A stretch of DNA of 64,000 nt from Caenorhabditis remanei (taxonomy: Eukaryota > Nematoda > Chromadorea > Rhabditida > Rhabditidae): assembly GCF_010183535.1 (NCBI RefSeq), contig NC_071329.1, positions 19,668,879-19,732,878 on the forward strand, given 5' to 3'. Positions 25,814-63,924 of this stretch are shown here, piece by piece. The notes beneath the pieces were generated by a model. The model did not search any database and was not told the origin of the DNA. It worked only from the letters and a program-made list of their open reading frames with translations. A program made the position numbers and the translations under genes. Position 1 is the stretch's first letter. Every line of letters starts with the position of its first letter.

Positions 25814-27297
25814 TTAATATCCAGGGGCGGTACGTGGTGGTGGACAGTGATCGCATCCTCCTCCGGATCCTGGTGCTCCTGCCTCTCCAGGTGATCCTGG
25901 TGCTCCAGCGTTTCCTGGTGCTCCGTCCGGTCCAGCGTCTCCAGCTGGTCCTGGTGGTCCTGGCTCGGAAGCTCCGGCAGATCCTGGGTTTCCTGCTGGT
26001 CCTGGTGGTCCGGCTGGTCCTGGGTTTCCAGCTGGTCCTGGGGTTCCTGGAGTCTCGGTGACTTGTCCTGGAGCTCCTGGGTTTCCTGGTGCTCCTGGGG
26101 CTCCGTCGTTTCCGGCTGGTCCTGGTGGTCCTGGTGGTCCGGCTGGTCCCTCGCCTCCTCCTGATGGAGTGTTTCCTGGAGCTCCGGCTGGTCCTGGTGG
26201 TCCAGCTGGTCCTGGTCCTCCGGCTGGTCCGGCTGGTCCTGGTGGGCAGTCAAAGCAGAAATCGGCGGCGGTTGGAGCGGCAGCGGCCTCGGCGTCAGAT
26301 CCAGCTTGTCCTGGGTTTCCAGCCTTTCCGTCCTCTCCTGGGTTTCCGTCTTTTCCTGGTGCTCCGGCTGGTCCAGCGGCTCCGATTCCGCAAGAGCAGC
26401 ATGATCCTCCGGCGGATCCTCCGCCTCCTCCCTCGGAGTATCCTCCACGACGAGAACGGGTGTCTCTCTTGATACGAGAGTCAACTCCCTTCACTGTCTC
26501 GAACTGAAAATAATTGTTTTTTTCTGAAATCTCTAATCAAAAATGGAAAATGGAAAATTTTCGTCTGTATCTTTAATTTTAAGAAAATGAATATAAATAT
26601 AAATCTAACCTTAAATAGAAATTTCGAAAAACTGTTTTCAAAAATGTCGCTTTGAGTTCTGGTTAATTATTGAGTGGATAATTGGAATATCTTTTTTCAT
26701 GGTAATTAATTTCACAAACTCACTCTGTGGAACTCATCCCAGAGTCCGTCGGTTCGGTGCTTACAGAATTCGACCTGTAAATAATATTCATAAAAAATTC
26801 ATTCATTTCATTGATATGCTTTACCTCATTCTGAAGGGAAGATTGAACGTGTTGCATGTAGTTGTAGAGCATTGGCACGGCAATGATGGCGGTCAGGGTG
26901 GCGATGGTCGACACCGAGATTCCTAGAAATAGTTTGATAAGGAAAACTAGCTGGGAATAAGGAATAATAACATTTAAATTAATTTAAGTTTTTTAAAAAG
27001 AAATATTACTAGAGGAAAAAAATCCAGTTTTCTAAATCACAGAAAAACTGAAAATAATGAAAATTTTAGTTATTTCAGAAAAGTTATACTATGATAGTGT
27101 CAAAGCTAAATTTTTCAGAAAATGTTCAGAGAACAAATAGATTTTCAAATAAGAGAAAATAAAAGAAAACGGAGAAAAATCAGCTTAATATAAAGATAAT
27201 TTTTAAAAGAAATAAACTTTTAATTCCGAAAAAACATACCAAAGAAAGCGAGTTTCTTGAGGCTCTCAGCCTCGGCAATCTTCTGTTTCTCTTCCAT
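25814..27297 (-). CDS. Cuticle collagen
   Basis: Exons are 27297-27240, 26922-26825, 26774-26724 and 26503-25814, giving 298 aa. The N-terminus has a conserved leader ([16 protein letters not shown]) and a hydrophobic signal-anchor ([19 protein letters not shown]). After that come the usual linker and a furin-type site DSRIKRD near the start of exon 4, where cuticle collagens are cleaved. The triple-helical part is Gly-X-Y repeats broken by short interruptions and flanked by Cys motifs ([15 protein letters not shown] and CDHCPPP), which form inter-chain disulfides. It ends PPRTAPGY. Length and plan are typical of nematode cuticular collagens; I cannot assign a specific col gene. Expression in hypodermis before a moult is expected from the family. 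Confidence 0.95.
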
Positions 27298-45868: not shown

Positions 45869-46126
45869 TTATCCGGAAGCAACATGATATTTGGAATGAG
45901 CATCTTTGTAAATCTTGACAGTTCCAATAAGAGTCATTGTTTTGAAGGCATCTTCCAATAGCGGTAGCATGTTTGGATGAGAAACATATTGAGGAAGAGG
46001 GGTGTAGATAGGAGTTTGGTTCATAACCGTAGGTTGAGGAGCCTGTTTATTGGGAATATCCGGTTCTGGAATTTGGGGTTCCAGGGAGCCGGGTGGAAGA
46101 GGCACTTCTTCTGGCTGGTCAAACAT
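45869..46126 (-). CDS. Small proline-rich protein, Maverick-encoded
   Basis: This 85-aa protein starts MFDQPEEVPLPPGS. It has a proline-rich first half (EVPLPPGSLEPQIPEPDIP) and a C-terminal part with MLPLLEDAFKTMTLIGTVKI. The ATG is one base past the protease stop (TAA, C, ATG), which fixes this start over an upstream in-frame extension and suggests coupled or polycistronic expression. It is the last gene of the leftward cluster. I know no function; its position among virion genes suggests a structural or scaffolding role. Confidence 0.6.
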   Translation of the reverse strand: MFDQPEEVPLPPGSLEPQIPEPDIPNKQAPQPTVMNQTPIYTPLPQYVSHPNMLPLLEDAFKTMTLIGTVKIYKDAHSKYHVASG

Positions 46127-46127
46127 G

Positions 46128-46646
46128 TTAAAATGACAGCGGAGAAAATAATTTTTGAGAATGGAAGGGCTTGAATATTTTGCTTTCACAGGACTTTAGG
46201 TGGTTTTTGACCCACTTTACTACAAATTCGTCATTTTTGGCCAAATTTTTGGAAAATGGGGTCTTGATTCCCTTGTTGCCATGTTTTCTTGTTTTTCTAA
46301 GCAGAAAGTAAATACAATGATAGCCGCACACATTGGAGAGAAGGCCTTGAATCGGGAACTGAATCACTTTCTTCCATTTGACACAATTTTTCGTAAAAAA
46401 GACCAAAAACTCGGTTTGAGGGTCACAACCACTACTATCGAAGAAATATCCATAATTACGATCGTCAATCCACAAAGCAACCCAATGTTCACCTTCTTCG
46501 GTACTTGGTGCTGTATTCCAAATAAACGAACAAGGTCTCCTTGAAATGATGGGATGGTGGTCACTCGGAAAAACACCACCGAAACTTTCTCTAGTTTGTC
46601 GGCATGTGCTTAGAAATTTCTCTAGTTGGATAGTGGAAAGAGACAT
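46128..46646 (-). CDS. Adenovirus-type cysteine protease (Maverick maturation protease)
   Basis: This is 172 aa, intronless. It belongs to the adenain-like C5/C48 fold, which cleaves capsid precursor proteins during virion maturation. The catalytic residues are visible in canonical order: His54 in GEHWVALW, Asp70 in YFFDSSG, Gln100 in PIQG and Cys107 in NVCGYHC. The spacing Gln-x6-Cys is as expected. The start MSLSTIQLEKFLS was chosen by ATG and by the fit of His54. It lies 29 bp downstream of the stop of the spliced unknown gene and is followed at once by the proline-rich gene. All catalytic residues are present, so the enzyme appears functional. Confidence 0.92.
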   Translation of the reverse strand: MSLSTIQLEKFLSTCRQTRESFGGVFPSDHHPIISRRPCSFIWNTAPSTEEGEHWVALWIDDRNYGYFFDSSGCDPQTEFLVFFTKNCVKWKKVIQFPIQGLLSNVCGYHCIYFLLRKTRKHGNKGIKTPFSKNLAKNDEFVVKWVKNHLKSCESKIFKPFHSQKLFSPLSF

Positions 46647-46675
46647 TTTGTGACAACAGTTTATTGAAAGAAAAG

Positions 46676-47299
46676 TTAGAAAAGACAGATACGGATCCAA
46701 ATTGCCTCAACCGGATACAAACGACCTACTGAATCACGCAAAAGTGGAGAATTGGGTTGATTTAGAGATATTTCGTATTTTTCTTCAAAATAGCGTTGAA
46801 CACACACAAATCGTCTTTTAGCCGGTGGTTTAGGAATAATCATATTCACAAAATAATGATTTCTTGGCGTAGCGTCTCTGAAAATACTACTTTTATAGAA
46901 TATTGTGCAATTTTCAACTTACAGACTAAGTTCCGACGTAAGATCGACAGACAGGCCATTACAACCATTCCACATTTTAAGAATATTCAAGTCGAGAAGG
47001 TGATAATTCATGGTACGTGTTTGATTAGGAGTAGAAAATGCAAGACGTCCAAACTTTTCCATTAGATGATTTGCCAAGTTCACATCGACACACTGAAAAT
47101 TTGCAAAAGTTGTATATTTTCCGCCCCAAAAACAACATAACAACATCGCCCCTTATTGAAAGCATGCCAAAGGGTCACAACAAGTGACCTGGAGGCAAAG
47201 CGTGTTCAATATGCTTATACTTAAAATTGCACTTACCCCAACAGCTGGTGGCACATAGTCGGCGGGAATAACAATTGGACGATTTGTTCCCGGAAGCAT
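46676..47299 (-). CDS. Unknown Maverick protein, three exons
   Basis: Exons are 47299-47237, 47092-46923 and 46877-46676, giving 144 aa with matching phases. The N-terminus is MLPGTNRPIVIPADYVPPAVG; exon 2 has HLMEKFGRLAFSTPNQTR; exon 3 has PAKRRFVCVQRYFEEKY. I recognise no domain. It lies between the major capsid and protease genes, so a minor virion or assembly protein is plausible. It is unusual among the late genes in having introns. Intron 1 contains a copy of the GGTCAC-AACAA-GTGACC palindrome found twice in the internal non-coding block. Confidence 0.6.
47173..47189. repeat. GGTCAC-AACAA-GTGACC palindrome, copy 1
   Basis: A 6-bp inverted repeat around a 5-base loop is followed by TGGAG. 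The same motif with the same flanks (GGGTCACAACAAGTGACCTGGAG) occurs at 53158-53174 and 53658-53674. Upstream flanks are also similar (AACAACATAACAAC here, AACAACATAACCACC there). All copies lie inside the element. Confidence 0.75.
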
Positions 47300-47338
47300 G
47301 ATACGACCGCCCTCTGTGTCAAAACAAACGAAATGAAC

Positions 47339-48595
47339 TTAACGAGGACCAGTCACGACCACATTTCTGAACCCATCGACTTCATAAGATGCATCAAATT
47401 GTGACAAAACTATCGCATTTAGGCCACCTTTGGGTGTTTTTTGCGAAAAACGCATTTTCAGCTGTGTACTTCCACTTTTTTGAAGTTCCCAAGCATTTGA
47501 AGTATCAATTGGAGAAATGTTAAAAACAAAGAAAGTATAGCCTGTTCGGAACATTTTGTAGGAAATCTTGGGACACGACTTGTTTGAAACACAACCAAGT
47601 TCTTCGTACATTCGGGTGAACGCTTCGGCATAGTTTTTGTTCGAAAAGTCACAGTTGATAGGTTGAGGAGGGTACATAACACCTCCCGCGTCAAGTTGAA
47701 TTTCCGAAACATGGTAGTGGTCAAAATTTAAAGAATCTTTTGTGACAGAATTTTCCGGGTTGAGCAAGCCAATGATAACGAGTCTTGGAATTATATCGTG
47801 ATAAATGGTGTTGAATGGCAAATCTAGACGCCCTTCAGGAATTGAAATAATTTTGACCTTGGAAATAGTAAAAGGGTACAAGGCGGGTGTTGTTCTAAGA
47901 CGATTTTCCAAAGCTATGGCAGCTGATGAAACTACATCGATAGCCCGCATGTGAAGTTTCAAGTCAGAAATTTCCAATTGGGCTTTAGTGGCCTTTGCAG
48001 CTTCAAGACAAAATTCGTCAGAGTTCCGATAGAATGTCAATGTAATATTCACATGAGGAACCAATAGTTTTTCTGTTTGGAATACTTCCAAAAGTACAGG
48101 AGCGCACACATCCAGTTCTTTTGTAGAACTGAGAATTCGCCCATCTTGAGATCCGTCAGGATCACACCAGCCAGCAGCGGTCAACAATCCTCCTTTTGTG
48201 TCCCCATTTTCTCCGAATAGTGTATGTATATAACTCTTATAGTCATAATTATTTGAATCATATACTATCACATTGTTGAAAAACAGTTTCACTTGGTTGA
48301 AGAAGGTTGCACCAATAAAATTTGTGTGGGAAATAACGTTTGCGTCCACACCATTTGTCGCGGCTTCAACATTTTTCAGAGAAAGTTTGAAACTCACATA
48401 AGTCTTGTTGAGTTGGAAGAAGTGAGCACTGTCATGAACATTAAAAGTATAGGAAGTTCCGGAATCCACAGGATTTGTCGGGGTATAAGTCATCCATTGT
48501 CCTTTATTGAATGCCACCTGACTAGGTGGGGTATCAAAAATACAAAGGCTGGAAGGAGCACTCGGTGCGCTTTTGTTACTCATCAATTTGGCCAT
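47339..48595 (-). CDS. Major capsid protein candidate (double jelly-roll type)
   Basis: This is 418 aa, intronless. Polinton major capsid proteins form hexon-like trimers. The N-terminal region reads YTFNVHDSAHFFQLNKTYVS, followed by beta-rich sequence with conserved aromatic and Asn-rich segments (FFNQVKLFFNNVIVYDSNNY), a pattern found in nematode Maverick capsid proteins. Size and position (between the basic protein gene and the protease) fit. Its start overlaps the upstream gene's 3' end by 13 bp. I assign it from order, length and pattern; a structure comparison would settle the double jelly-roll. Confidence 0.78.
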   Translation of the reverse strand: MAKLMSNKSAPSAPSSLCIFDTPPSQVAFNKGQWMTYTPTNPVDSGTSYTFNVHDSAHFFQLNKTYVSFKLSLKNVEAATNGVDANVISHTNFIGATFFNQVKLFFNNVIVYDSNNYDYKSYIHTLFGENGDTKGGLLTAAGWCDPDGSQDGRILSSTKELDVCAPVLLEVFQTEKLLVPHVNITLTFYRNSDEFCLEAAKATKAQLEISDLKLHMRAIDVVSSAAIALENRLRTTPALYPFTISKVKIISIPEGRLDLPFNTIYHDIIPRLVIIGLLNPENSVTKDSLNFDHYHVSEIQLDAGGVMYPPQPINCDFSNKNYAEAFTRMYEELGCVSNKSCPKISYKMFRTGYTFFVFNISPIDTSNAWELQKSGSTQLKMRFSQKTPKGGLNAIVLSQFDASYEVDGFRNVVVTGPR

Positions 48596-49104
48596 TTTCC
48601 AAAAATATCAGTTTTCCGCGAAGATGATTTTGGCAGAGATCGTTTTTTGGTGTTTGTTCGTTTTCTTGCCACTTTCGAAGATTTTCGCTTTCTTCCTCCC
48701 TTTTTCACTTTTCGCGTCTTTTTGATACTTTTGCGGGTATGACGGATATTTTTCCTCTTTATACGTCCACCAGACTGTTCCAACTTGTTGATTGCACGAT
48801 TGACAAGAGAATTATAAGAATCAGAAGCGTTTTTAGACAAAGACTGTTTGAAAGAATCACCAGCCACTACGTCGTTTGCAACACGAAGTGATGAATCCAT
48901 AACTTCACGACCCATGGAGACTCCTATTCGTTTTAGCAAGGGAACAGCGGAAATGAAGAGTTTTCCGAGTAATTGAGAGAAAGGGCCGTTTCCACGTTGG
49001 TAAAGACTTCCGGCACGAAATCCACCAGAACCGGTCTGGTCGAGGTCATTTTCAAAGAAATGGACCCAATCAACAGAATTGTCAGGATCAAAGTAAATAA
49101 GCAT
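48583..49104 (-). CDS. Basic virion protein candidate with Gly-rich hydrophobic centre
   Basis: This 173-aa protein has three parts: an acidic N-terminus (MLIYFDPDNSVDWVHFFEND), a Gly-rich and hydrophobic stretch (GSGGFRAGSLYQRGNG, then PFSQLLGKLFISAVPLLKRI), and a very basic tail (KKTRKVKKGGRKRKSSKVAR). The pattern resembles small DNA-binding or membrane-active core proteins of adenovirus-like virions, such as precursor core or protein VI-like factors, but I cannot choose among them. It sits directly upstream of the major capsid gene, with a 13-bp overlap, and 45 bp downstream of the minor-capsid candidate. Confidence 0.65.
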   Translation of the reverse strand: MLIYFDPDNSVDWVHFFENDLDQTGSGGFRAGSLYQRGNGPFSQLLGKLFISAVPLLKRIGVSMGREVMDSSLRVANDVVAGDSFKQSLSKNASDSYNSLVNRAINKLEQSGGRIKRKNIRHTRKSIKKTRKVKKGGRKRKSSKVARKRTNTKKRSLPKSSSRKTDIFGKWPN

Positions 49105-49149
49105 TTGTAAACTCGAGAATTGCAGAAATTATACGATCTCACGTTTGTT

Positions 49150-49923
49150 TCAACCATCAAAAGATGAACTGATAGGACGAAAGTGAAGAACAATCACAAT
49201 CTTCCCAGAGTTAAATGGAATGAAATGATTACGATCGTTTTTGATTTGAATGCCAATCTGGTTCATCTCTTTGCAACGTACAGGCACATATAGTGGGGTT
49301 ATGAACGATTGTTCAACATTTCCCACGTTTTGCGAACTTATGCTGATAATCTTCAAAAGTGGTACTTTCATGTGACTAACAGTCTGCGGCTCCACTAATC
49401 CTTCAGAATAGATATACATCAAGTCGGAACCAGAAAACATTGAATATTGTCCATGTTTAGGGAATTTGTCACAAATTTTATCAATTCCCAGGAAATAACT
49501 GAGACGATCCGAAAACTCCACTTTTGAGACTTTTTCCGTTTTTTCACACGTCACTCTCTTGAATGTTTGATCATAGGTAAATAGAACGGCATCAGGTTTT
49601 GAGGCATTTGTTAGAGTTTTCAAAGATTTGCTCAGTGTTTGATTCAAAATATCTATAAGTTCGGAAGGTGATGTAAAAGAACAATTTGGAACTTTGCACT
49701 TGACAACCTTCTTTTCGTACCAAACCAGGAACTCATTTTCGTAATTTCCATTTGATTCCAAGTTTTTTGATATCAAATCATGTGAAGTCGGATAAATTAT
49801 GGAAGTCAAAGCAACTTCATAAGGTTTGTTGAAATTGATAGAAGATGGAAGACTTGTCTTGAAATTGGAAATTGTAGACTCGATTTGAGCATTACTGACC
49901 AAAGTGATATAAAAGTCAGTCAT
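49150..49923 (-). CDS. Minor capsid (penton-like) protein candidate
   Basis: This is 257 aa, intronless. The N-terminus MTDFYITLVSNAQIE is followed by NFKTSLPSSINFNKPYEVAL, a pattern shared by a conserved Maverick protein (a SN...F...LP....L....EVAL arrangement). It continues with TSIIYPTSHD and a beta-rich body. Size and position next to the capsid gene cluster fit the Polinton minor capsid protein, although I cannot see a jelly-roll directly. The ATG overlaps the upstream small membrane protein's stop codon in an ATGA arrangement. Confidence 0.65.
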   Translation of the reverse strand: MTDFYITLVSNAQIESTISNFKTSLPSSINFNKPYEVALTSIIYPTSHDLISKNLESNGNYENEFLVWYEKKVVKCKVPNCSFTSPSELIDILNQTLSKSLKTLTNASKPDAVLFTYDQTFKRVTCEKTEKVSKVEFSDRLSYFLGIDKICDKFPKHGQYSMFSGSDLMYIYSEGLVEPQTVSHMKVPLLKIISISSQNVGNVEQSFITPLYVPVRCKEMNQIGIQIKNDRNHFIPFNSGKIVIVLHFRPISSSFDG

Positions 49924-50126
49924 TCTTTGATTTTTGGGTTAGGTAGCAAATATCCGATACAAGAACCAAGAATAATTAGCCACTGTTGGTGTTGGGGGTA
50001 GTCAAGAGTACAAATTTTATATAAAGCGACAAGAGTGACAATGTAAATTATTAACACTTGTGACACAAATACAAGCAATGCTTTGGAACAATGAGTGTTT
50101 CCACAAGACCACTTCGACCCGTCCAT
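49920..50126 (-). CDS. Small two-helix membrane protein, conserved in Mavericks
   Basis: This is 68 aa. A Cys-containing N-terminus (WSCGNTHCSKA) leads into a helix ALLVFVSQVLIIYIVTLVAL, then a short loop and a second helix (WLIILGSCIGYLLPNP) ending in KIKE. The LGSCIGYLLPNP ending is a pattern I associate with a small Maverick-encoded membrane protein. It might act in virion membrane or egress functions, but that is inference. Its stop overlaps the next gene's start (ATGA). Confidence 0.7.
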   Translation of the reverse strand: MDGSKWSCGNTHCSKALLVFVSQVLIIYIVTLVALYKICTLDYPQHQQWLIILGSCIGYLLPNPKIKE

Positions 50127-50209
50127 AAATGAAAAATGAACAAGTGGGAAAAAGAAAAAGACAAAAAACAGAAAAAATTCGAAATTCTTTAATATTTTTC
50201 AAAATATCA

Positions 50210-51203
50210 CTAAACATCTGGCTTTCTGTACAAAACCATCTCTTCTTCATACCATATGCCATCTACTTCGTTTTCCTCCACATCTGCCAAAATGTAAACA
50301 GGAATGTCGTATTCGATTATTTTGACAACTTTGAACACTTCACTAGTCCATTTTGCCCTTGTACCTTTCGCAAAGGGAGAATTTTCCAAAAGTACTCTGA
50401 CGGGATCACCAACTTTATACTTTGGAGAACGAGATTGAACAGTACCGTATAGACGATTCCAAATCTTTTGTGAATTATTGCTTGTGACTTTATTGGGACT
50501 TGTTCCAATTGAGTCCATATACGTATCGTTCAAACCTTCAACAATATCACTTAATACTCTCGTCCATTCGAAGCTATCTGTAGCAGTAAACCACTTTTCC
50601 AACTTGTTCTTTATTCTCATAATTGCATTTTCAGCATAACATGCCTTCACATTTGTATTTTTCGGGTTCATGTGGCAAATTCCTAGTGATCGAACAAATT
50701 TTTGAAATGTTTTCCCCATAAATTCGGTACCTGAAATAAAAATAGCAAATTTCAATAGTTTTCAAAATACTCTTACCTTTATCAGTATATAAACGTGCGG
50801 GAATTCTCCAACTGGAATGCAAAATGTCTTCATAAGCCGTAGTGACAGTTGAACATTCTTTGTTCTTTAGAGGTCGCGCAAATACATACCGACTAAAAAC
50901 ATCAACAACCACCAGTATGTAACAAAATCCCTTGTTATATCTTTTGAGAGTGGGTAACATTGCGAGATCGGCCATATGGTGACTGTCAGGTCCTGTGGCC
51001 ACCCAAGGATTGTGTTGAATATGTCTCGCTTTTGGAAAGTGTCGAGTGTAAGCATTGTTTGTATGAAGATAGGCAACAACTTCTTTTCGAGTAATTCGAC
51101 GATCAACTTTTCTGGCAGCTGCGAGTAAATTTGAAACACCACGGAAACCTTTTTTCGGATCATTGTATAACTTCTCCAATAATTTTGTATTCAATGTCTC
51201 CAT
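50210..51203 (-). CDS. Retroviral-type DDE integrase
   Basis: Two exons, 51203-50777 and 50730-50210, give 315 aa. It inserts the element's DNA into the genome. The rve core is clear: Asp79 in HHMADLAML, Asp141 in LYTDKG (at the exon junction) and Glu175 in CYAENA, with spacing close to the classical D,D-35-E. Between them are IVVVDVFSRYVFARPLKN-like strands (FCYILVVVDVFSRYVF). The C-terminal part (KYKVGDPVRVLLENSPFAKG) resembles the SH3/chromo-like DNA-binding tail of Maverick integrases. All three acidic residues are present. The start overlaps the preceding gene's end by 13 bp. Confidence 0.94.
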
Positions 51204-51913
51204 GCTTTAACAGAAAAACTTCTTTGACTGGAACGGGTTGGGTACTTGCGTCGCGGATTGAGAATGAATTTCTCAGGAAATCCTGATTGTTTGAGGGCTT
51301 GAGTTAAAAGAGGAAAGTTGGGACAAGCACCGGGAAGAGGAGTAATGTTCGAAAAATCATTCAGAATACGGTTTAGAGTGAAAGTTGGAATTTTTGTGTC
51401 ATTCACATATAAAACCGATGAAGTGTCCTGAAATCGAAAAATTTGTGGATTTGTTTCCAAATGTTCTAGTAATTCCGCCTTTGCCTCGGATCCACTAATT
51501 GGTTTTGGAGATCTTGGTGTTCTTGAACCTGTTGACGCTCTTATAGTTATAGGTATTTTTGGAGTTATCGGTGTGGCTGGAAGAAATACATCATCGTTTA
51601 GCATTTCTTCCTCCTTTTCTTCTTCAACACCTGCTGTCTCAACCCTTGGCAAATTTTGCGGAAAAGAGGGGGTTTCTTCACTTTGAGGTAACATAGGTGT
51701 ATGTTTGGTCTTTTTTCGATCATCTTCTTCAATTTCGTTATTATTCAACCTTTTGTTCACAATATTGGTCAAATGACTTTTAATGTGTGCAAGTTTGACA
51801 TCACTTTCCATGGGAGTATTGAGTAAATTGCCAATAGGATCAACTTCTTTCCGATTTGCGATTAAATCTGCATGTTCTTCGATCGAAAGCAAGACATATT
51901 TACCGTAGGACAT
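51191..51913 (-). CDS. Conserved Maverick protein of unknown function
   Basis: This is 240 aa, intronless. It begins YGKYVLLSIEEHADLIANRK, has a low-complexity acidic middle (ETAGVEEEKEEEMLNDD) and a Pro/Thr-rich segment (PATPITPKIPITIRASTG). The C-terminus is a compact domain with VNDTKIPTFTLNRILNDF and a basic end. A YVLL...EEH opening and a C-terminal globular domain recur in a Maverick protein of unknown function encoded near the integrase. Position suggests a role in integration complexes or virion assembly. Confidence 0.6.
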   Translation of the reverse strand: MSYGKYVLLSIEEHADLIANRKEVDPIGNLLNTPMESDVKLAHIKSHLTNIVNKRLNNNEIEEDDRKKTKHTPMLPQSEETPSFPQNLPRVETAGVEEEKEEEMLNDDVFLPATPITPKIPITIRASTGSRTPRSPKPISGSEAKAELLEHLETNPQIFRFQDTSSVLYVNDTKIPTFTLNRILNDFSNITPLPGACPNFPLLTQALKQSGFPEKFILNPRRKYPTRSSQRSFSVKAWRH

Positions 51914-52259
51914 GTTCGAGAATACTGGATGCAGCAGAAATCAGAACGGGTAATAGAATAGTGAGGGGACTACCACCAGATTGAATGAGAAATTCACGAG
52001 TTTCGTCAATGTCCCGGATATTGGACAAATGTCTCAAAGATTCAGAGTAAGGTTTCAACTTTTGGACTGAACGAGGGGAAATCTTGATTGTACCGTTTAT
52101 TATGTTGAAAACGAGTTCCACAAGACAAATCAGCACATTATCCGGAATATCTTTCAATTCCGAGATTCTATCACTTTCTGACAAATTTGAAGACAAAGCG
52201 AGAATTTTGTGAAAAGTGTCCAAATCCCATTGGGAACAGTTATTTTGGGATGAAGACAT
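51900..52259 (-). CDS. Conserved small Maverick protein, helical with Gly-Gly motif
   Basis: This is 119 aa. It is helical throughout, with LVELVFNIINGTIKISPRSV followed by QKLKPYSESLRHLSNI, then FLIQSGGSPLTILLPVLISA. The order of a helical N-terminus, a short loop and a QxGG...LLP.L hydrophobic tail matches a small protein often encoded next to the packaging ATPase in animal Mavericks. The function is unknown. It overlaps both neighbours (14 bp with the downstream gene, 20 bp with the ATPase). Confidence 0.6.
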   Translation of the reverse strand: MSSSQNNCSQWDLDTFHKILALSSNLSESDRISELKDIPDNVLICLVELVFNIINGTIKISPRSVQKLKPYSESLRHLSNIRDIDETREFLIQSGGSPLTILLPVLISAASSILEHVLR

Positions 52260-52869
52260 GTGTTATTCTGCCAGGAAGAATATTGTCACGATATCGAATC
52301 TCGTCGGGACAATTTTTGTGAAGATCGATAAGTAAATACGTGTAAGGTTGACTTGTAGCGTCGTTATAAATGGCCAAGAAAGTGTTACAAGCACCAGGCA
52401 TAAGTTGAGATCCCAAACACCGCACACTTGACTTGTCCGCGTTGTTTTTGAACAAAATGATATAACTTGCCTGAAGACGAAGGTTTCTGATAACTTTTGA
52501 GTAAAAAATAGTGTGAAGTAAGAAAATAACAGTCATATCGTAGTGGTGGGCCAAAACCGAAACAAGTCGTTCCATTCCAGAGTTTTGGTCAATTTTTGTC
52601 ATTAAATCGTCTATAACCACCAATACTTGATCTTTTTTGTATTTCTTCAATTCTTCCAAGTTCGGCAATCCTTCCCGTAACATGATATCAGGCCGATTCT
52701 TCATCGAGTCGGGTACGCTTTCAAAAGTATCGTAATACCAAAAGCAAATTTTGCTGTCCACATCAAAAATAGTGTTCCGCTTCTCCACAATTTGACGAGC
52801 CAGCGTGCTTTTTCCTTGGCCACTGGGACCGACAATCAGAATAGTGCTCTGCCAAGACAGCTTAACCAT
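52240..52869 (-). CDS. A32/FtsK-HerA-type genome packaging ATPase
   Basis: This is 209 aa, intronless. It should pump DNA into preformed capsids. Walker A is GPSGQGKST at about residues 14-22. Walker B is VLVVIDDLM at about residues 82-90. A downstream HTIFYSKVIRNLRLQASYII segment fits the sensor region of poxvirus A32-like ATPases. Length is typical of Polinton enzymes. It is the first gene of the late cluster, so its upstream region (52870-53100) may hold the cluster promoter. Both nucleotide-binding motifs are intact. Confidence 0.93.
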   Translation of the reverse strand: MVKLSWQSTILIVGPSGQGKSTLARQIVEKRNTIFDVDSKICFWYYDTFESVPDSMKNRPDIMLREGLPNLEELKKYKKDQVLVVIDDLMTKIDQNSGMERLVSVLAHHYDMTVIFLLHTIFYSKVIRNLRLQASYIILFKNNADKSSVRCLGSQLMPGACNTFLAIYNDATSQPYTYLLIDLHKNCPDEIRYRDNILPGRITHVFIPK

Positions 52870-53117
52870 GTTGAATGAATTATTTTTGTGCCTTTATCAC
52901 CATTTCCAAGTTTCGAATATAACAAGAAAATGATCCATTTTTGTATTTTTTATCGAAATTATACTTTTTGTCCAGAAATTATACTTTTTGTCAAGAAATT
53001 ATACTTTCCGTAACATTTCGAAGTTACGGACAACTTTTCTCTAGTTGGCAAGATTCCAACATGATGTCATCGGCGACATGAGAGAGAGAGAAATGTTTTG
53101 TTTGTCCTCCCCTCTTT

Positions 53118-53258
53118 CCCATATAACAACATAACCACCAAGAAAAGCAAGTCGGAGGGTCACAACAAGTGACCTGGAGATGAAGCGAAAGCCAAAGGCT
53201 AAACCTTCCCTTCACCACTCCTCACCGGAGCGGCTCATTGGTCAGGTTCTGAAAAGGG
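53118..53258. repeat. ~140-bp module, copy 1
   Basis: The module begins CCCATATAACAACATAACCACC, includes the GGTCAC-AACAA-GTGACC palindrome (53158-53174) and ends near GGCTCATTGGTCAGGTTCTG. A near-identical copy lies exactly 500 bp to the right at 53618-53758. A third, partial copy holding only the last ~55 bp is at about 54754-54810. Confidence 0.85.
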
Positions 53259-53282
53259 AATTGTGTTGTGAGAGATTCCATT

Positions 53283-53490
53283 CCAAAACCGTGTCCCATA
53301 GCATGTGGAAATCCAGACACTTAGTGCAAAAACTCCAAAACCGTGTCCCATAGCATGTGGAAATCCAGACACTTAGTGCAAAAACTCCAAAACCGTGTCC
53401 CATAGCATGTGGAAATCCAGACACTTAGTGCAAAAACTCCAAAACCGTGTCCCATAGCATGTGGAAATCAAAACACTCAGTGCAGAAATT
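53283..53490. repeat. 52-bp tandem repeat, about four copies
   Basis: GTGTCCCATAGCATGTGGAA recurs at 53291, 53343, 53395 and 53447, each followed by ATC(C/A)A(G/A)ACACT(T/C)AGTGCA. The fourth copy diverges at its end, and single degenerate ACTTAGTGCAAATT copies continue to about 53600. This is a direct tandem array without unique spacers. Confidence 0.88.
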
Positions 53491-53617
53491 ACCTTCTGTT
53501 TCCTCCCTCACCAATGCAAATTCGCATTTTATGTGGGGACCTCACTAGTGCAAATTGGCATTCTTTTTTCTTTCCCCAATACTTAGTGCAAATTCGCTTT
53601 CTTTTTCGCCTTCACTT

Positions 53618-53758
53618 CCCATATAACAACATAACCACCAAGAAAAGCAAGTCGGAGGGTCACAACAAGTGACCTGGAGATGAAGCGAAAGTCAAAGGCT
53701 AAACCTTCCCTTCGCCACTCCTCACCGGAGCGGCTCATTGGTCAGGTTCTGAAAAGGA
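53618..53758. repeat. ~140-bp module, copy 2
   Basis: Near-identical to 53118-53258, with the GGTCAC-AACAA-GTGACC palindrome at 53658-53674, and ending CACCGGAGCGGCTCATTGGTC. The identity over 140 bp against a diverged surround suggests recent duplication or functional constraint. Confidence 0.85.
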
Positions 53759-54045
53759 GTTTGTGTTGTGAGAGACTCCATTTCAAAGTCTTGGGAATTT
53801 CCATGCAATGTGAATGTTGAAATAAGTTCTAAAAGTTGGCACGATGCCAACTCCTACCGGAGCTTTTGGTACTCTGTGATGACTCATCCCATTTGTCCTT
53901 GACAAACGGACGTTTTGGTGGTATAAATAGCGCCTCATTGCAGCGTTTCCCTCATTCTATATCATTTTTGGACACCAGTGATGTCCTATCTCTATTTTCT
54001 GATTTTTTCTGAGTGTTAGAAATCGTTATTGCAACTCGCATCCAC

Positions 54046-54656
54046 ATGGTTCGAACGTCTTCGACTTTACCGATTTATGGAAATGGTTGGAGGAGAAAGC
54101 ATTACTGGTATGTCTGGAGTACCCAAGAAGTGGTGGACAAATAAGTTGGGAACAAAGAAGGAACATTTATCGAAATCAACGAGAAATTAATTCAAGATGA
54201 GAATGAAACTCTTCTTCGACTCGTCCGAGAAAGTCACCCAGATTATGAAGGAGATAACGAAGAACTGAAAATTCAACTGAAAAGTGAGTTTACATATACA
54301 AGACGAGGAAAGTTACTTATTAATTTACATATTGCAGGACAACTGAATATGCTCATCCCAACTTCTAGTGAGAATGAAACGGAAGACGATTCGGAACAAT
54401 CAAAACGAAAAAAGAATGGAAACAAGGACAACAAGAAAAAGTACAACCGATATAGAAGAAGTTTGTTGAAGAATGAAGTCCGGGAAGGCTACATTGATGT
54501 TTTCGAAGAAACCACTTGCATTCAGAAAAACCAATTGTCTTGGATGTAAAACCATCTGTTTCAAAAACCAGCTCGGTTGTCAGTCAGAAATATCTCGCAT
54601 GGTTCAGTCAAAAAGAAGCAGTTCAAGTTAACATTATTGATCGACACCTTTGAATA
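54046..54656 (+). pseudogene. Inverted, internally deleted polymerase-derived sequence
   Basis: An open segment from about 54125 with a GTGAGT donor (54284) and a TTGCAG acceptor near 54338 leads into a Lys-rich exon ending at the stop at 54549. Within it, NRYRRSLLKNEVREGYIDVF is almost identical to the polymerase exon 3 sequence on the opposite strand (58725-58815). Right after it, and in another frame, is sequence matching polymerase exon 8 (VSQKYLAWF against LSQKYLAWI; opposite strand near 56950-57030). So distant parts of the polymerase gene are juxtaposed with the exons between missing. The upstream part (54046-54283) has no match I can see. It may be a remnant of a second element or a rearranged copy; expression as a short protein is possible but unsupported. 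Confidence 0.7.
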
Positions 54657-54991
54657 TTGTTGTACTTAAATTGTTTGAAATAAAACATATATTTTTGAAA
54701 CCAACTTCCTCTAGATAACAAGGGAGCTGGAGTAGAAGTGCTAGCAAATTGCCTAACCTTCCCTTCACCACTCCTCACCGGAGCGGCTCATTGGTCAGGT
54801 TCTGAAAAGGTGATTATGTTGTGAGAGATAGTTGACCACAAAAACCAAGTGCGGGAAATGACCTCTCTCTTCCCCCTTTTTCCCGCAGGCCTCCTCCTCC
54901 TTTTTCCCCCACTCCCCCTCCCTTCTTCCTCCCTTATGTTTTCCCGCATAGTGCCCATTCCCCACCAAAAAGACAAGTTTATAATAATTTA

Positions 54992-57900
54992 TTATTCAAA
55001 GTATCCAAAGGGAAGGGTTGAACCATCGGGTAATAAACGGCGTTTATTAAAAGTATAACGGAACTGCTTGAGTGTGTTCCGACTATACACACTGTGGTTT
55101 TTGTCTCGGACCATTGTGTGTTGTGGAAGAAGGAGAGACGTCCTCGAATCCTCCTTTCCCAGCACCTCATCAACCATCCCCTTCATTTTTTCAAAGTTCA
55201 GCTTTTTGGCGACTTCCGAGTTGATGGTTATGCCCTTCGCCTTGATTGCCACCTTCTCCTCGCCATTTGCCAACTGTTCCTTGTAAGAATACGTTTTGGG
55301 ACCAAGGCTAACAAATTCTTTCATGGTCCCTTTGAGTTCATTCGTCAGTTGACCAAGGTACGATCCCATCTTATCTTCCAAGGGATTCGGTGTGCCATGT
55401 GGGAGTTTGAAGATGATTGAGTCCGTGTCTGAAAATAGAAAAATAGAATTTTTGACGATAATTTATAATATTTACCTGTATAGACAATGTTGTCGGGGCC
55501 AACGGCTTCCATCAGACTATAGAGACGGAGTCTTGCATATGCTGTGACATATGCAGCCAGATGAACAGCACTCGTCTTCAAACTTGAGAGAGTTTCTTCT
55601 CTTTGCCTGTATTGAACAATCAGCACATCGTTTACCGGCCTCACATCCAGAAGATCCAGGGCAGTGTCGTGGACAATCTGCCAAAATTTTCCTGGATCCA
55701 GGATGATCTCTGTATTGACTCGGTCGGCTCGCTGTGCGAATTTTCCCCACTGAAAACACATTTTTTATAAAGTTTCAATATTGAAATACTTACCAATGCA
55801 TTGAGTAACAGTTTGGCGACTGCTCTCATTCCGGCATTCCCCTCGAAGAGACTTTCTAGCAGTTCAATGTTCTCCTTCTCCATGTACCCCCGGCAGAATT
55901 CCAATTTTTCTGCATCGGTGACCACATCGGAAGGCCATCCACTGCTATACTGAAAAATTTTTCAAAAGTACGAAAAATTATTTCCTCGAAAAAACTTACA
56001 ATCTTGGCCTTCATCATCGTATCAATATAAGAAGTGAAAAGGCCACCTTTTCCACTGGCATCATTCTTCACCCACTTCTCATACTTGATTCCGTGGTACA
56101 CCTCGACGATCTTGTATCCGAGGCTCAATGCTTTTTTCAGCTCCACGGTGGTGAAGGTTCCGGTGAAAGACCGTTCTTCGTCGGAATGTGTGCATTTCTC
56201 CTGATTTCCTTCCTTTGCGCACACTAAAATTGAGAGAAAATTTGTGAAAATGGAAAGAAAAACTCACACTTGCAAAGGAAAAACATCAGTCTTCCAGAGA
56301 CTTTTCCAGCGATGACTGGAAGCCTCAAATCCCTCGGAGCCTGCAGCTTGCAGCTCATGAAGCCTTCAAAGGGAATTCCATCAGGAGAAACAATCGGGAG
56401 GGCGAACGTGCTTCTTTGAACATTTTCCGGCGCTCCAATCGGAAAAGCTTCGTGCTTCATGACGGTGGGGTACAGACTGACCACGTCTACATAGTACCCC
56501 GTACCGTCCTTGCAATCCACATACACGCGGAAGACTTCCGTACGGCCTCCAACAAGGGCACGTTGACACTGAAGCACATCGACGGCTTCGTAGCTGTCAA
56601 AGAAGTCAGCCATTTCACGATTGGACCGAAGTTCAGCCTTCACATCACATTCATATACGACACGGACAGGACATTTTCCGGATTCTTTCAGAGCTTTGAT
56701 TCTCTCCTCATCCGCCTTCCAAATGTCCCGGGCACTCTTCTCGCCAATAACCGACTCTTCCGAATAAGTACAAGTATGACCATGATAGTAGCACCCCTGA
56801 ATTTAAGAATAGTCAACTGAAATGTAAAGAAAAACTTACAAAAAATTCAATTATTTGGCCGTCAGGGTACTTCTCACATGGCGGAATATAACCATCCACA
56901 CGATGATTTCCAATTTTTTCCTCACCATATGTTGTGGACATGTTTACTTGCACTTTCTCAGATTCACAAATCCAAGCCAAGTATTTTTGGCTCAGGATGG
57001 AATTGTTCATGGAGACGGAAGGTTTGGCATCCAACACAATTGGCATTTTCGGGTCCAGATGGTTTCGCCGGAAGACGAGGGCAGCAGCTGATGCGGCAGT
57101 CGTGGTCTCCTGAAGAGATTCAGAGTGTGAGAGTGAAAGAACGTACCCCCACTATAGAGAAATAGACGAAAAAGTTACCTCGAAGAGACAGACGTTGGTC
57201 ATCTTTTCAAATTCCCTCTCGAAGAGTCCCATTGAGGTCGCCAGAATGTATACATCGTTATAGCAATATTTCAGCAACTCGTCATAAAAGTTGAAGACCT
57301 TTCCATCAGCCCTCTCCTTCTCGAGGAAGCTCTCCAATTGCTCCCGATGTTCTCTACTCTTGTTTTCCAGAGCATAGTACTTATTCTCCGGAATTGGTCC
57401 ATTGTATTGGAAGTTCTCCTTCCGAATGAAATGGACTGGAAAGTCCCCCTTGAGCGAATCCACCTTGAAGGTCTTCCCTACCATCGATAGACTCATGGTG
57501 AGGTATTTCAACGAGTCAACGAGTCGCACTCCATTGTATTCCAGATAGACCAATTTGGTTCCATCCAGACAAACAGTAGGGGCGGCTTTGTTGCTCGCAA
57601 TCAGAGCCTCCAAGATGAACTGACCATCGAAGCTAAAAAATTCAGAATAAAATTTAAAAATTTCAAGATTAAAATTACCCAGAAGCATTGTGCGCCACAA
57701 ACGTGAAGCCTCGATGCTTATCATCAAACATCCATTCCGTAAACGTGGCCCCGACGTCGATGCCTTCGTCCTTAATCTCATCGATGACTTTCAGACGACC
57801 GTCCGGAGAACAGTTCGAACACTTTGAGTCTTCACCCTCGTCAGTAGTCTTCGGAATGTCACTCGAGCATTTGGGACAACATTTGACACAAGTGAAGAGA

Positions 57901-59647
57901 GTTGGAATTTGTCTTTTTGTGGTCTCACAAACACGGGTCTAAAAATACAAGTATAATTTTTAAATTATTATTGAAAAAAGTACCTCAACATCAAAAAATC
58001 CACGCTTCCGAGTCAACTTCTTTTCGTTTTTGATGGAAGGCATCATTGTGCAAGTATGGCCGGCTTGCTTCTTCTCTTGACATCTGTGGCAATAAGACTC
58101 TCCGCATTCATGTTTTCCAGTCCTCTTGTTGGTATAATAAGACTTTGAACACTTTTGACAATATTTGGTGTAGTCACAGCGACTTTTTCCACCATTTGGG
58201 CCTGGAAATAACGGTTTAAATAGTTCCAGACACTCAGAAACTAACCTTTCTGCAGATGATTCTTATAGCACGTCTCCGTCTCAAAAGTCACACAACAGAC
58301 TGGACATCTTTTTGCCACGTCATTTTCAGTTTTTGGAGGGCAGTTGGGCTTTCCGCAAAAGCGATGAAGAAGGCGACAAGCATAGTGGGATTCAGCAGCC
58401 CTACTTCTTGAGAAACACAAAAAGCAATAATACGAAGTTTTTAGAAGACTGGCTACACTCCTCAATCCACAATAATGCCCATCAGCTAGATATAACACAA
58501 TCTGCTTTTCTTTTCCAACATAGGGACCAGAATAATAAGGAAGAGTGGAGTTTTTGACAAAGACAATCAGTTGAAGCTGACCCGCAAAGCATTTTTCTTG
58601 GAACACAGAACAATCAACACTATCGAAGTCGTACATTTTGGTGATTCCCGCTTTCTGAGAACAAACAAAATGTATTTTTAGAACAAATTCTTTATTTTAA
58701 ACCAACCTTTTTCAACTCATTGACCTCTTGGAAAACATCAAGGTAGCCTTCACGAACTTCATTCTTCAACAAACTTCTTCGATATCGGTTGTGTTTTTTC
58801 TTGTTGTCCTTGTCTTGCTTCCATTCTCGGTGACGAAGAGATTGTACTATGGCATGGACGAGGCAATTACGGGAAACTGAAAAAAAAAAAACAAATTTTA
58901 GAAAATTTCGATTTCGACCAACCTTTGTTAGGCATGAGATGATGTCGTTTTGGCAAAACCTCTTCAAGAATCTCGACATTGTCCAAGTCACCCAAATCTT
59001 CTTCATCACTCTCACTTCCTTCTTCTTCTTCTTCGTCCCTTTGCTTCTTTGTTGAGGGGAGACCCAGAATTTCTTCAATACCAAAACTTTTCCTTTTTCC
59101 TCCACTCTTTTTCGCTGGCGTGGCGACTTCACCTCCTTTGTTGGAGGCTTCTTCTCCACTGCCAGAAGGTGTGTTGAGGTAGGTGATGTGAATTGTGATA
59201 CTGGGTTCCTCAAGCTCGAGCAAGTTTTTGTTGGATTGAGCCATGTCCTCCATACAGTCGGCAATGTCCCGTGGCAAAACATTTGCCAACTTCTTGAATG
59301 AGAGACCCACACTCTCCACAAGCTCCTCAGACTCAAACTTGACCCCGACTTTCAAATTAGCTGGGGTCATACCGGCAGGGATATGGGAGTCGATCAACTT
59401 CACGACGGCCTCCGAGAAAAGGTCCGGACCACTGGGGGAAGCGGTGAAAACCGTGGGAATGTCCACATCTAGACTAACAGTTTTTACACTATTCTTAAAA
59501 CGTCCACCAGACTTAGCAACGAATACCCTTCTCACTTTCAGCAAAGCCCCGCCCACTTGGACCTATAAAAAGACTATAAAAATTGAAACACCCTCATTCA
59601 CTCACGTTTTCAACCTCCTGTCCGGTGACCTCTTCGATTCCGCTCAT
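54992..59647 (-). CDS. Protein-primed family B DNA polymerase (pPolB)
   Basis: Thirteen exons: 59647-59606, 59562-58923, 58876-58707, 58654-58246, 58201-57984, 57938-57679, 57632-57179, 57109-56840, 56796-56268, 56223-56000, 55949-55794, 55749-55476 and 55428-54992, giving 1360 aa. It replicates the element from protein-primed ends. The N-terminal part has an acidic linker and RNCLVHAIV; exons 4-6 carry several CxxC pairs. Exo II is HNASGFDGQF (split by an intron) and Exo III is YCYNDVYIL. GCYYHG, typical of pPolB, opens exon 9. Polymerase motif A is DVVSLYP, motif B is KLLLNALWG (split) and motif C is YTDTDS (split). All catalytic acidic residues are present, and all exon phases agree. The start follows an AG acceptor. 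Confidence 0.93.
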
Positions 59648-59669
59648 TTTTCAGCTTTCTACTCTGAAA

Positions 59670-59927
59670 ATGTCAATTCATCCACAAATTATTCCAAAGA
59701 AAGAAATCAACCAGTCTGGAACGGCTTACGTCATTCCGACCCAAACTGACTATTTCGATAATACGACGGTAAGGAGAAAGGAAAACTATTCAAAAATAAA
59801 AAACCACTTTCAGATACAAGAACAGCCATTCTTTGTAAATCCAGTGAAAACTGAGAAAAAGCCGGATACGTACACCTTCCATTTTGCGAAAGGATCCGCA
59901 CCAGTCATCACCATCCAAAATCAATAA
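59670..59927 (+). CDS. Small Maverick protein of unknown function, two exons
   Basis: Exons are 59670-59768 and 59814-59927, giving 70 aa. It begins MSIHPQIIPKKEINQSGTAY and ends in a beta-like tail FHFAKGSAPVITIQNQ. It is transcribed divergently from the polymerase gene, whose ATG is only 22 bp away, so the two share a promoter or have overlapping leaders. No domain is recognised. The size and the divergent position suggest a small regulatory or replication-associated factor, which is inference. Confidence 0.55.
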   Translation: MSIHPQIIPKKEINQSGTAYVIPTQTDYFDNTTVRRKENYSKIKNHFQIQEQPFFVNPVKTEKKPDTYTFHFAKGSAPVITIQNQ

Positions 59928-60360
59928 TGATAATGGAGGCTCGGCTCCCAGAAGGAAGCCCCGCCCACTTTACACTTTTATCAATTTGCCCCCTTTTCCA
60001 CCAAAATGGCCCCCTCCCGATGATGACTCACCCCATTTCCAATCAGTTTTGCACCATTTTGCTCAATTTCGTCTCCTCCTCGGATGAGTCATCGCGTCCA
60101 TATCGCCTCCATGTCCCCCTTTCTTCAACTTACAAACCACTTCCCTCATTTTTCCTCATTTCCTGCATTTTTCAACTTTCCCCTCATTTCACCCAGTTTT
60201 TCAACTTTTTCCTCATTTCCTGCATTTTTCTGTAAAAATTGCCAGGTCCAGTTTCCCTATATAAAGAAAATTGAATCTTTCATTCCGTCTTCATTTGTCT
60301 CTTTGAGTATGCGTGTTTTCCTTTCTCTCTCTCTTTAAAAAGCCTGTTTCCGTTATAGAA
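59928..60360. promoter_or_regulatory. Pyrimidine-rich intergenic region upstream of the right-end gene
   Basis: About 430 bp are rich in TTTTTC and CCCC tracts, with a tandem-like TTTCCTCATTTCCTGCATTTTTC pair near 60149-60230. A TATATAAAG box is at about 60259-60267, roughly 95 bp upstream of the ATG at 60361, so this probably holds that gene's promoter. A short TCTCTCTCTC run is near 60323-60336. Confidence 0.5.
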
Positions 60361-60875
60361 ATGGCCATCACCCGTTGGGACATGTCCAAAGCTTCCGAAT
60401 CTGAGAAGAAAAGCTCTGTAAATGACGATTCAATGACTTTGAACGAAATCGTCAACGATTTGGCGAAGAAGAATCCATTCTTGAAGACCCCAATGAAGCG
60501 TCGTCGTGAAGAGAAAGAAGAAGTTTCCGCTGGAGAAAAACGCTTGGTAAATTTAATATTTGGAACAATTTTGATTTAAATATTAAATTTAAGGAATGGT
60601 TGAAAGAAAAAGCCAAGAAGGCAGTGATTCCAACGGAGCAAGTATCGACCTTGAAGCCGGAGCACATCTTTTTGGAGAATGGCCCCCTCATCATCCACAT
60701 GTGTCTGGAATGCAAGAAGTTCAACTCCACACGCACCGTCACAAACCTCGGAGAGGGGAAAATCCAACTTCCACTCGGGCTCTGTACCATCTGCCGCTCC
60801 CACATTAATCGTCAACGGGCCGTCAAGTTTTTCGAGCACGAGCTTCCAGCCATCAAAAAAACGTATGATCTTTAA
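60361..60875 (+). CDS. Maverick protein with a CxxC/CxxC zinc-binding-like module, two exons
   Basis: Exons are 60361-60546 and 60594-60875, giving 155 aa. The N-terminal half is charged (SESEKKSSVNDDSMTLNEIV; MKRRREEKEEVSAGEKRL). The C-terminal half holds MCLECKKFNSTR and LGLCTICRSHINRQR about 33 residues apart, a pair of CxxC motifs that could bind one zinc ion. It is the outermost gene on the right. A zinc-binding protein here could be a transcription or replication factor; no family is recognised. The start follows a TATATAAAG box and begins MAITRWDMSK. Confidence 0.65.
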
Positions 60876-63470: not shown

Positions 63471-63924
63471 TACAGTACCGGTCAAAAGGTTGTAAACTTT
63501 CGCCGTTTTCAGTTGAAATGATCTAACTATGAGAGTGTGTCATGGTAATGCTAATTGTCCCATCAAGTAGATTGTTAATGAATTATACATATCACAAGTA
63601 GAGCTCCGTTTTTGTAGTCGACAATTTTTTGTACAAAAACTCCCTAGAGAGTTATAGTCATTTTAGGACGACAGCTCAAAAATCGCACTATTTTACACTG
63701 GAATTTGTCGATTTGAGGGAGAAATTACTTTGTCGATATGTCACTTGCTAGAGAGTGTCCGCACAAAAAAGTTGTCAACTACAAAAACGGAGCTCTACTT
63801 GTGATCTGTATAATTTATTAAAAATATATTTGATGGGATAATCAGAATTACCATGACGCACTCTCAAAGTTGGTCATTTTCCGCTGAAAATAGCCAAAGT
63901 TACCACCTTTGGACCGGTACTGTA
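63471..63924. mobile_element. TIR element (MITE) with TACAGTACCGG ends
   Basis: The left terminus TACAGTACCGGTCAAAAGG and the right terminus CCGGTACTGTA are inverted. Internal blocks also mirror each other: CACAAGTAGAGCTCCGTTTT on the left against AAAACGGAGCTCTACTTGTG on the right, and CATGGTAATGCTAATTGTCC against GATAATCAGAATTACCATG. The ends begin at TA, fitting a Tc1/mariner-type MITE. No open frame is present. Relics lie in introns at 32040-32137 and 34515-34612. Confidence 0.85.

What the first reader, a model, noticed from the sequence alone, without database searches (positions are those of the whole stretch)
45869..60875. Apparently intact Maverick/Polinton with complete virion and replication gene set
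Polymerase, integrase, packaging ATPase and protease all keep their catalytic residues (seen directly), and capsid-type genes are open. Old copies usually carry stops or deletions in several genes. A copy that can still be read end to end might be recent, horizontally acquired or still mobile. No envelope-fusogen-like gene was recognised in this copy, although some nematode Mavericks carry one.
Basis: partly seen in the sequence, partly recalled or inferred. Interest (0 to 1): 0.92.

Follow-up and report, generated by a model that had tools for sequence, protein, structure and literature searches.

The report
Complete Polinton scarred by palindromic kin
This stretch of roundworm DNA holds a complete virus-like mobile element (a Polinton) with its core genes open and a duplicated target site at its ends, and the same genome holds palindromic relatives that carry the polymerase but no detected integrase or capsid gene, which likely depend on complete elements like this one.

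Summary
The gene and exon pieces examined are open: polymerase (13 exons by GT-AG borders), integrase (2 exons), and predicted ATPase, protease, double-jelly-roll capsid and penton. Related copies lie on three other chromosome-size contigs and one rearranged contig. Between copies dN/dS is about 0.1, so the genes were under selection, but capsid-half synonymous divergence is 4-5%, so very recent movement is not shown. The polymerase half is a mosaic (13-27%). No fusogen candidate was seen. As such it is a new member of the known nematode Polintons.

The unexpected part lies around it. Twenty pairs of facing polymerase genes, 16 on chromosome-size contigs, have no integrase or ATPase match nearby. 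Seven were examined further: 4 of 4 read at their ends have 6-bp duplications, and in 4 of 4 compared the arms are identical over 200 bp while elements differ by 8-35%. The window's subfamily carries an inverted polymerase relic closer to one group of these (71-83%) than to its own polymerase (55%). I infer capsid-less satellites that recombine with complete Polintons; help in trans is untested.

The parts
45075..61773 (.). whole Polinton, 16,699 bp
   Evidence: homology to dispersed copies, matching ends, 6-bp duplication
45069..45074 (.). left target-site duplication CCAGGG
61774..61779 (.). right target-site duplication CCAGGG
45075..45098 (+). left terminal inverted repeat (first 24 bp; the same 24 bp occur at both ends of the C4 and C5 copies)
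61750..61773 (-). right terminal inverted repeat, decayed (6 of 24 differ)
45869..46127 (-). small ORF, unknown (separate or C-terminal to protease)
46128..46646 (-). predicted adenain-like cysteine protease
   Evidence: Pfam Peptidase_C5 E 0.0012, under cut-off; weak match (E 0.058) to solved viral protease S273R
46682..47302 (-). unknown gene, 3 exons
   Evidence: open exons; 0 amino-acid changes in 122 codons against each of 3 copies for the two exons tested
47339..48595 (-). major capsid protein, predicted double jelly roll
48583..49101 (-). basic core protein-like, unknown family
   Evidence: open, 0-1 amino-acid changes in 172 codons; label recalled, not from a call
49150..49923 (-). penton (minor capsid) protein, predicted
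   Evidence: Foldseek best hits mavirus penton 6g41/6g42; 98% to CRE_29162 of C. remanei
49920..50123 (-). small hydrophobic protein
   Evidence: open in copies; hydrophobic by eye
50210..51200 (-). retroviral-type integrase, 2 exons, intron splits the TDKG/TEF motif
   Evidence: Pfam rve E 2.1e-08; exons open in copies; splice site by eye
51191..51913 (-). unknown gene
51900..52259 (-). unknown small gene
52240..52869 (-). predicted packaging-type P-loop ATPase
   Evidence: 0-1 amino-acid changes in 209 codons; packaging role recalled from the family
53116..53787 (.). repeats: 172-bp direct repeat and 52-bp x4 tandem array
54046..54660 (+). relic: scrambled inverted polymerase fragments (exon 3- and 8-like, weakly exon 12-like) with a fragment of another gene
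   Evidence: exon 7-like part in the C4, C5 and C114 copies, closest to palindromic elements when the C4 version is searched
54993..59648 (-). [quoted passage not shown]
59670..59927 (+). small gene S; a similar ORF seen by eye in the palindromic arm read
60361..60875 (+). gene with CxxC pairs (zinc-ribbon-like by eye; no Pfam match), 2 exons

Best explanation
Window 45075-61773 is a complete Polinton with a 6-bp target-site duplication, open polymerase and integrase genes and predicted ATPase, protease, capsid and penton genes; it likely spread as a virus-like element copied by its protein-primed polymerase, and it likely recombined with capsid-less palindromic relatives that would borrow integrase and capsid from elements of its kind. 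Shown: ends, duplication, open exons, copies at other sites, purifying selection, uneven polymerase divergence, an inverted polymerase relic, and facing polymerase pairs without integrase or ATPase in the same genome. Inferred: particles, replication intermediates, recombination as the source of the mosaic and the relic, and help in trans.
For: Ends and duplication: 3 of 3 copies whose ends were read (window, C4, C5) carry different 6-bp duplications. Gene set open. dN/dS against the C4 and C5 copies 0.10 and 0.11 in the capsid half, 0.08 and 0.12 in the polymerase, so virion genes as well as the polymerase were kept by selection. Synonymous differences 4.4-5.4% in the capsid half against 13-27% in the polymerase, uneven among polymerase exons (p 0.0009 to 1.6e-16), with near-identical patches beside diverged ones. 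Relic: its exon 7-like peptide matches one group of facing-pair elements at 71-83% but the subfamily's own polymerase at 55%. Palindromes: integrase or ATPase match near 0 of 20 facing pairs, MCP near 1 of 20 (C124, in range of a neighbouring complete element), against 33 of 54 other polymerase hits that have all three; 6-bp duplications at 4 of 4 examined.
Against: No copy is near-identical, the right end of the window copy has decayed, and nothing here shows transcription, excision or particles. Sister copies carry lesions: a stop in the C4 protease and a 1-nt indel in the C5 capsid gene, a split ATPase in the C6 copy, and C114 is rearranged. The palindromes' ends (AGAGAGGTA...) share only the first five bases with the window's (AGAGAATTG...), so another Polinton subfamily may be their helper. 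Other palindromic groups match the relic at only 56-65%, no better than capsid-bearing elements (37-61%) at the low end. Gene content was read in one palindrome only (C1), with 2.7 kb of its arm unread, and absence of genes rests on homology to the window's proteins.
Confidence: 0.8

Rival explanations
1. An old, inert Polinton fossil that happens to have kept open frames; nothing moves now.
For: Right terminal repeat decayed at 6 of 24 positions; other copies carry stops or indels; no near-identical copy.
Against: Exons open in the window copy and dN/dS about 0.1 across copies; intact duplications at 3 sites. Selection could however predate insertion of these copies.
Confidence: 0.25
2. The inverted polymerase relic arose by fold-back duplication of the element's own polymerase, not by recombination with a palindromic element.
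For: It lies tail to tail with the polymerase, and its exon 3-like part is close to the element's own exon 3 (80-84%).
Against: The exon 7-like part, tested in the C4 copy, is 71-83% identical to one group of palindromic elements and 55% to the subfamily's own polymerase. Both routes may have contributed.
Confidence: 0.2
3. The facing polymerase pairs are long-read assembly artefacts (palindromic reads).
For: Several unplaced contigs are near-perfect palindromes.
Against: 16 of 20 pairs lie in chromosome-size contigs; 4 of 4 examined sit between different flanks with a 6-bp duplication; the central about 400 bp of the C1 element is asymmetric while the arm parts compared are identical, unlike a read folded on itself.
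Confidence: 0.07
4. The polymerase mosaic reflects gene conversion between chromosomal copies, not recombination between replicating extrachromosomal genomes.
For: Patches of near-identity between copies fit conversion equally well.
Against: Conversion would have to spare the capsid half, and the diverged patches need donors outside the four copies compared; no donor was found for the C5 exon 4.
Confidence: 0.35

Closest known systems
Nematode Polintons/Mavericks (C. briggsae polinton 1, P1-CB; Jeong et al. 2023, Widen et al. 2023)
   Same: Integrase, polymerase and capsid genes in Caenorhabditis (meeting summary passage of PMC10680173); polymerase with a vOTU-like region (passages and legends of PMC11071308).
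   Different: No fusogen or cargo gene recognised here; inverted polymerase relic; co-resident palindromic relatives. The two primary papers are not held; what they contain beyond these passages is recalled or unknown to me.
Mavirus virophage
   Same: Solved penton is the best fold match, solved capsid among the fold matches.
   Different: Here an element integrated in an animal genome; no giant-virus partner known.
Adenovirus defective genomes with inverted end duplications (recalled; one search, listed no direct source)
   Same: Protein-primed linear DNA; a palindrome made of one end duplicated, keeping the origin and losing most genes.
   Different: The palindromes here keep polymerase genes and are integrated with 6-bp duplications.
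Capsid-less linear plasmids with a protein-primed polymerase
   Same: Polymerase kept, capsid lost; treated as Polinton relatives (passages of PMC11071308).
   Different: Those are free plasmids (recalled); these are palindromic and chromosomal.

Membership tests
[quoted passage not shown]
   DNA_pol_B_2 (organellar and viral) in two exons; motifs by eye in open exons. Terminal-protein part not tested.
Polinton/Maverick | retroviral-type integrase | tested here: met
   rve E 2.1e-08, above cut-off
Polinton/Maverick | packaging ATPase | tested here: inconclusive
   P-loop protein with generic family hits only; packaging type recalled
Polinton/Maverick | adenain-like protease | tested here: inconclusive
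   Peptidase_C5 19 bits vs cut-off 21.3; S273R E 0.058
Polinton/Maverick | double-jelly-roll capsid and penton | tested here: met
   predicted folds match at modest model confidence
Polinton/Maverick | terminal inverted repeats and 6-bp target duplication | tested here: met
   the repeats are short, and decayed on the right
Polinton/Maverick | forms particles, moves between cells | not testable with these tools
   sequence only
nematode Maverick with fusogen | fusogen-like gene | tested here: not met
   no ORF above 262 aa in the element besides the capsid gene; ORF listing and family searches only, small ORFs were not modelled
Polinton satellite (palindromes) | no integrase, ATPase or capsid, but Polinton-type 6-bp duplication | tested here: met
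   by homology to the window's genes; duplications read at 4 of 20 pairs
Polinton satellite (palindromes) | depends on complete elements | not testable with these tools
   inferred

The most novel reading that the evidence does not exclude
This genome runs a two-party system: complete Polintons such as the window's act as helpers, and palindromic Polintons made of two copies of the polymerase end, without capsid or integrase, act as their satellites, copying one arm from the other at each round and recombining back into the helpers, which keep the scars. It would be an animal counterpart of defective-genome satellites, built into chromosomes.
Probability: 0.5. Interest if true: 0.82.

Novelty: new variant of a known kind. 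Interest (0 to 1): 0.6.

Why it matters
Polintons are thought to be central to the origin of several eukaryotic DNA viruses and linear plasmids, yet whether animal Polintons behave as viruses is open. Selection on capsid genes, mosaic polymerases and a dispersed class of palindromic derivatives would be expected of elements that meet and replicate outside the chromosome. Polymerase-only derivatives would also show, inside one genome, the step from capsid-bearing element to capsid-less replicon that is proposed for linear plasmids.

Tried and rejected
Long terminal repeats were sought within the window alone and no pair of 40 bp or more marked the ends; comparison with other copies gave the true ends. 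The 54.1-kb ORF was first taken for a gene; its frame is broken in the C4, C5, C6 and C114 copies and it is a scrambled relic. A whole nested palindrome at 54 kb was considered; no AGAGAGGTA word lies in window 44-63 kb. The idea that the C5 copy took its diverged polymerase exon 4 from a palindrome was not supported: its best matches are its own subfamily (80-88%), the rest 59% or less. No match to the capsid protein was found in viral contigs, with the tool's caveat that records near this genome may be left out. Papers: four searches bore on palindromic, capsid-less or non-autonomous Polintons or on nematode Polintons since 2022; in the parts listed (15 of 44, 8 of 8, 25 of 32, 12 of 177) no title or abstract start describes such elements. 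Those papers were not opened except for passages of PMC10680173 and PMC11071308, and the main nematode Polinton papers are not held, so absence from print is not claimed.

Errors on the way: one search used wrong frames for the penton, integrase exon 2 and zinc-like gene exon 2; the table was redone, which is the one cited. C114 values include one gene cut by its rearrangement, so its capsid dN/dS (0.26) is not used. In some searches polymerase exon 7 aligned with a pair of 2-nt gaps against all three copies; the protein alignment has no gap, so I read this as an alignment effect. The C1 end-arm count (1 of 1,323) took in four flanking bases; one search gives 0 of 1,319 within the element.
Full report
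What was checked. The window lies at G000:C2:19668879-19732878 in an unnamed assembly of 130,466,896 bases in 186 contigs.

The element. Copies on C4 and C5 align to the window from 45074-45075, and on the right fade at 61702-61722. Reading the edges gives ends AGAGAATTGTGGG... at 45075 and its decayed inverse at 61773, flanked by CCAGGG on both sides. The C4 and C5 copies keep the 24-bp end word at both ends and are flanked by AATGAG and GACACT. Such 6-bp duplications fit Polinton integration (recalled for the family). Length is 16,699 bp.

Genes. On the minus strand, from the right: polymerase in 13 open exons with GT-AG borders, ATPase, two unknown genes, integrase with one intron inside its TDKG/TEF motif, a small hydrophobic protein, penton, a basic protein, major capsid protein, a three-exon unknown gene, protease. 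On the plus strand at the right end: a small gene S and a gene with CxxC pairs, zinc-ribbon-like by eye and without a Pfam match. Family evidence is firm for integrase and polymerase and weak by sequence for protease, capsid and ATPase. Predicted folds support the capsid (mean pLDDT 65.7; PBCV-1, mavirus and Sputnik capsids among the matches) and the penton (mean pLDDT 77.3; mavirus and adenovirus pentons). Exons 3 and 4 carry a Cys- and a His-containing stretch that fits the vOTU-like region described for such polymerases in PMC11071308 (passages); this is by eye. No ORF above 262 aa remains besides the capsid gene, so no fusogen candidate was seen. In a related complete element on C4:19.92-19.94 Mb, 7 of 26 ORFs of 110 aa or more had no match to the window's element, the longest 187 aa, with two helicase-like by eye at the edge of the stretch.

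Copies and selection. With the ATPase as query, 41 of 90 matches are 82% or more identical and nearly full length; 25 more lie at 27-32% and form a second Polinton lineage. The window's own subfamily has the window, C4:5.72 Mb, C5:17.99 Mb, C6:21.1 Mb and the rearranged contig C114. Against C4 and C5, capsid-half dS is 0.045 and 0.053 with dN/dS 0.10 and 0.11; polymerase dS is 0.18 and 0.34 with dN/dS 0.08 and 0.12 (the first polymerase exon and a few short pieces left out). The C5 alignments of polymerase exons 2 and 3 are partial and gapped, so frame calls there are not used; the C5 exon 3 peptide itself reads open at 48% identity. Sister copies carry lesions: a stop in the C4 protease, a 1-nt indel in the C5 capsid gene, a split ATPase on C6. 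The window copy has none in the pieces examined, but a decayed right end.

Mosaic. Per 250 bp, copies differ by 0-5% over most of the capsid half, with a few bins to nearly 10%, and by 0-19% in patches over the polymerase half. For C114 against the window, synonymous differences are 1 of 160 sites in exons 3-5 and 0 of 65 in exon 12, but 79 of 401 in exons 6-11. Capsid versus polymerase contrast: Fisher p 5e-09 to 3e-47 for the three copies; heterogeneity among polymerase exons p 0.0009 to 1.6e-16; among capsid-half genes p 0.011-0.09. Sites are not independent if a patch was exchanged as a block, so these are descriptive. Recombination between elements is the simplest reading.

The relic. Between ATPase and polymerase the subfamily carries plus-strand pieces resembling polymerase exons 3 and 8, in the window also a weak 47-bp match to an exon 12-like stretch, and in the C4, C5 and C114 copies exon 7; the window adds a fragment 91% identical over 203 bp to a locus on C3. 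The exon 7-like peptide of the C4 copy (51 aa), searched in the genome, finds outside its subfamily first C124 (83%), C3, C98 and C5 (77%), C4 (73%) and C2 (71%), all facing pairs, whereas its own polymerase is at 55%. Other facing pairs are at 56-65% and capsid-bearing elements at 37-61%, so the link is to one palindromic group.

The palindromes. Polymerase exon 4 gives 98 matches. I entered 94, leaving out 4 that are second fragments or a contig-edge piece; the hits of ATPase, capsid and integrase were entered one per locus, leaving out further fragments and, for integrase and capsid, weak last rows, none of them near a pair. Pairs were counted if + and - hits face each other 6-17 kb apart: 20 pairs, 8.3-15.9 kb, 16 in chromosome-size contigs. 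Integrase or ATPase matches lie near 0 of 20; an MCP match lies near 1 of 20 (C124), in range of a neighbouring complete element. Of the 54 other hits, 33 have all three genes nearby, 3 have some, and 18 have none or only a distant MCP, 16 of these on unplaced contigs. The zinc-like gene lies outward on both sides of 6 of 20 pairs; elsewhere it was not detected. Ends were read for four pairs and 4 of 4 have exact 6-bp duplications: C1 GATAAC, C4 CCCCAG, C2 CAGTTT, C5 CTGCGA. The C1 element is about 18.65 kb; its two ends are identical over 1,319 bp, its inner arms are identical outside the central about 400 bp, and the centre is asymmetric. The parts of its arm read hold the zinc-like gene, an ORF like gene S, and polymerase exons; 2.7 kb of the arm was not fetched. 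In four elements (C6:9.37, C5:13.47, C4:10.57, C5:20.65 Mb; one of them also among those read at the ends) the two arms are identical over 200 bp while the elements differ from each other by 17-69 of about 200. So arms are alike within each element. I infer that one arm is copied from the other during replication, or that each palindrome formed recently from one arm; the data do not choose. For 13 of the 20 pairs the palindrome rests on facing exon matches alone.

How it likely works. The complete element would be copied by its protein-primed polymerase and integrated by its integrase; its capsid genes were under selection, which fits particles. A palindrome would result if a replicating strand folded back and duplicated the polymerase end: both ends would then carry origin and polymerase, and the capsid half would be lost. 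It would need integrase, and capsid if it travels, from complete elements. The relic in the window's subfamily suggests that the two forms met and recombined. Helper dependence, fold-back origin and particles are inferences.

What is known. Nematode Mavericks with integrase, polymerase, capsid genes and a putative fusogen, carrying cargo between species, are described in a meeting summary (PMC10680173, passage); C. briggsae polinton 1 in passages of PMC11071308. The two primary papers are not held. Four searches listed no paper whose title or abstract start describes palindromic polymerase-only Polintons, which does not prove absence.

Noticed in passing
G000 contigs C75, C86, C92, C174: Unplaced contigs hold near-perfect palindromes with ATPase- and integrase-bearing Polinton parts; in all four the two ATPase copies are 324 bp apart, and C92 repeats the unit at 13.7 kb beside a 43-bp satellite. 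Assembly artefact or real is undecided.
   Followed up: partly
G000:C114 (68.5 kb): Two palindromes that break a window-type element at the point matching window 51700/51701; arms 99.9-100% identical.
   Followed up: partly
window 54091-54416: Fragment matching a locus near C3:5146000 at 91% and 83%, and more loosely one at C1:4846894; possibly a captured host gene.
   Followed up: partly
G000, 25 loci such as C1:13162703 and C4:19311560: A second Polinton lineage with ATPase only 27-32% identical; some loci (such as C4:1.94-1.96 Mb) show zinc-like gene matches at both ends, hinting at long terminal repeats.
   Followed up: no
C3:10678412, C6:3261756, C6:21351512: Complete elements with an extra polymerase fragment (73% over 51 aa) in inverted orientation at the far, capsid-side end.
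   Followed up: no
window 63486-63910: Inverted repeat with 145-nt arms, 82% complementary, also found in the C3 locus L042; probably a small transposon.
   Followed up: no
window 7852-8174 and 25866-26359: Tandem arrays: a 9-bp unit in 36 copies, and repeats with periods of 9 to 36 bp that look collagen-like (label recalled).
   Followed up: no
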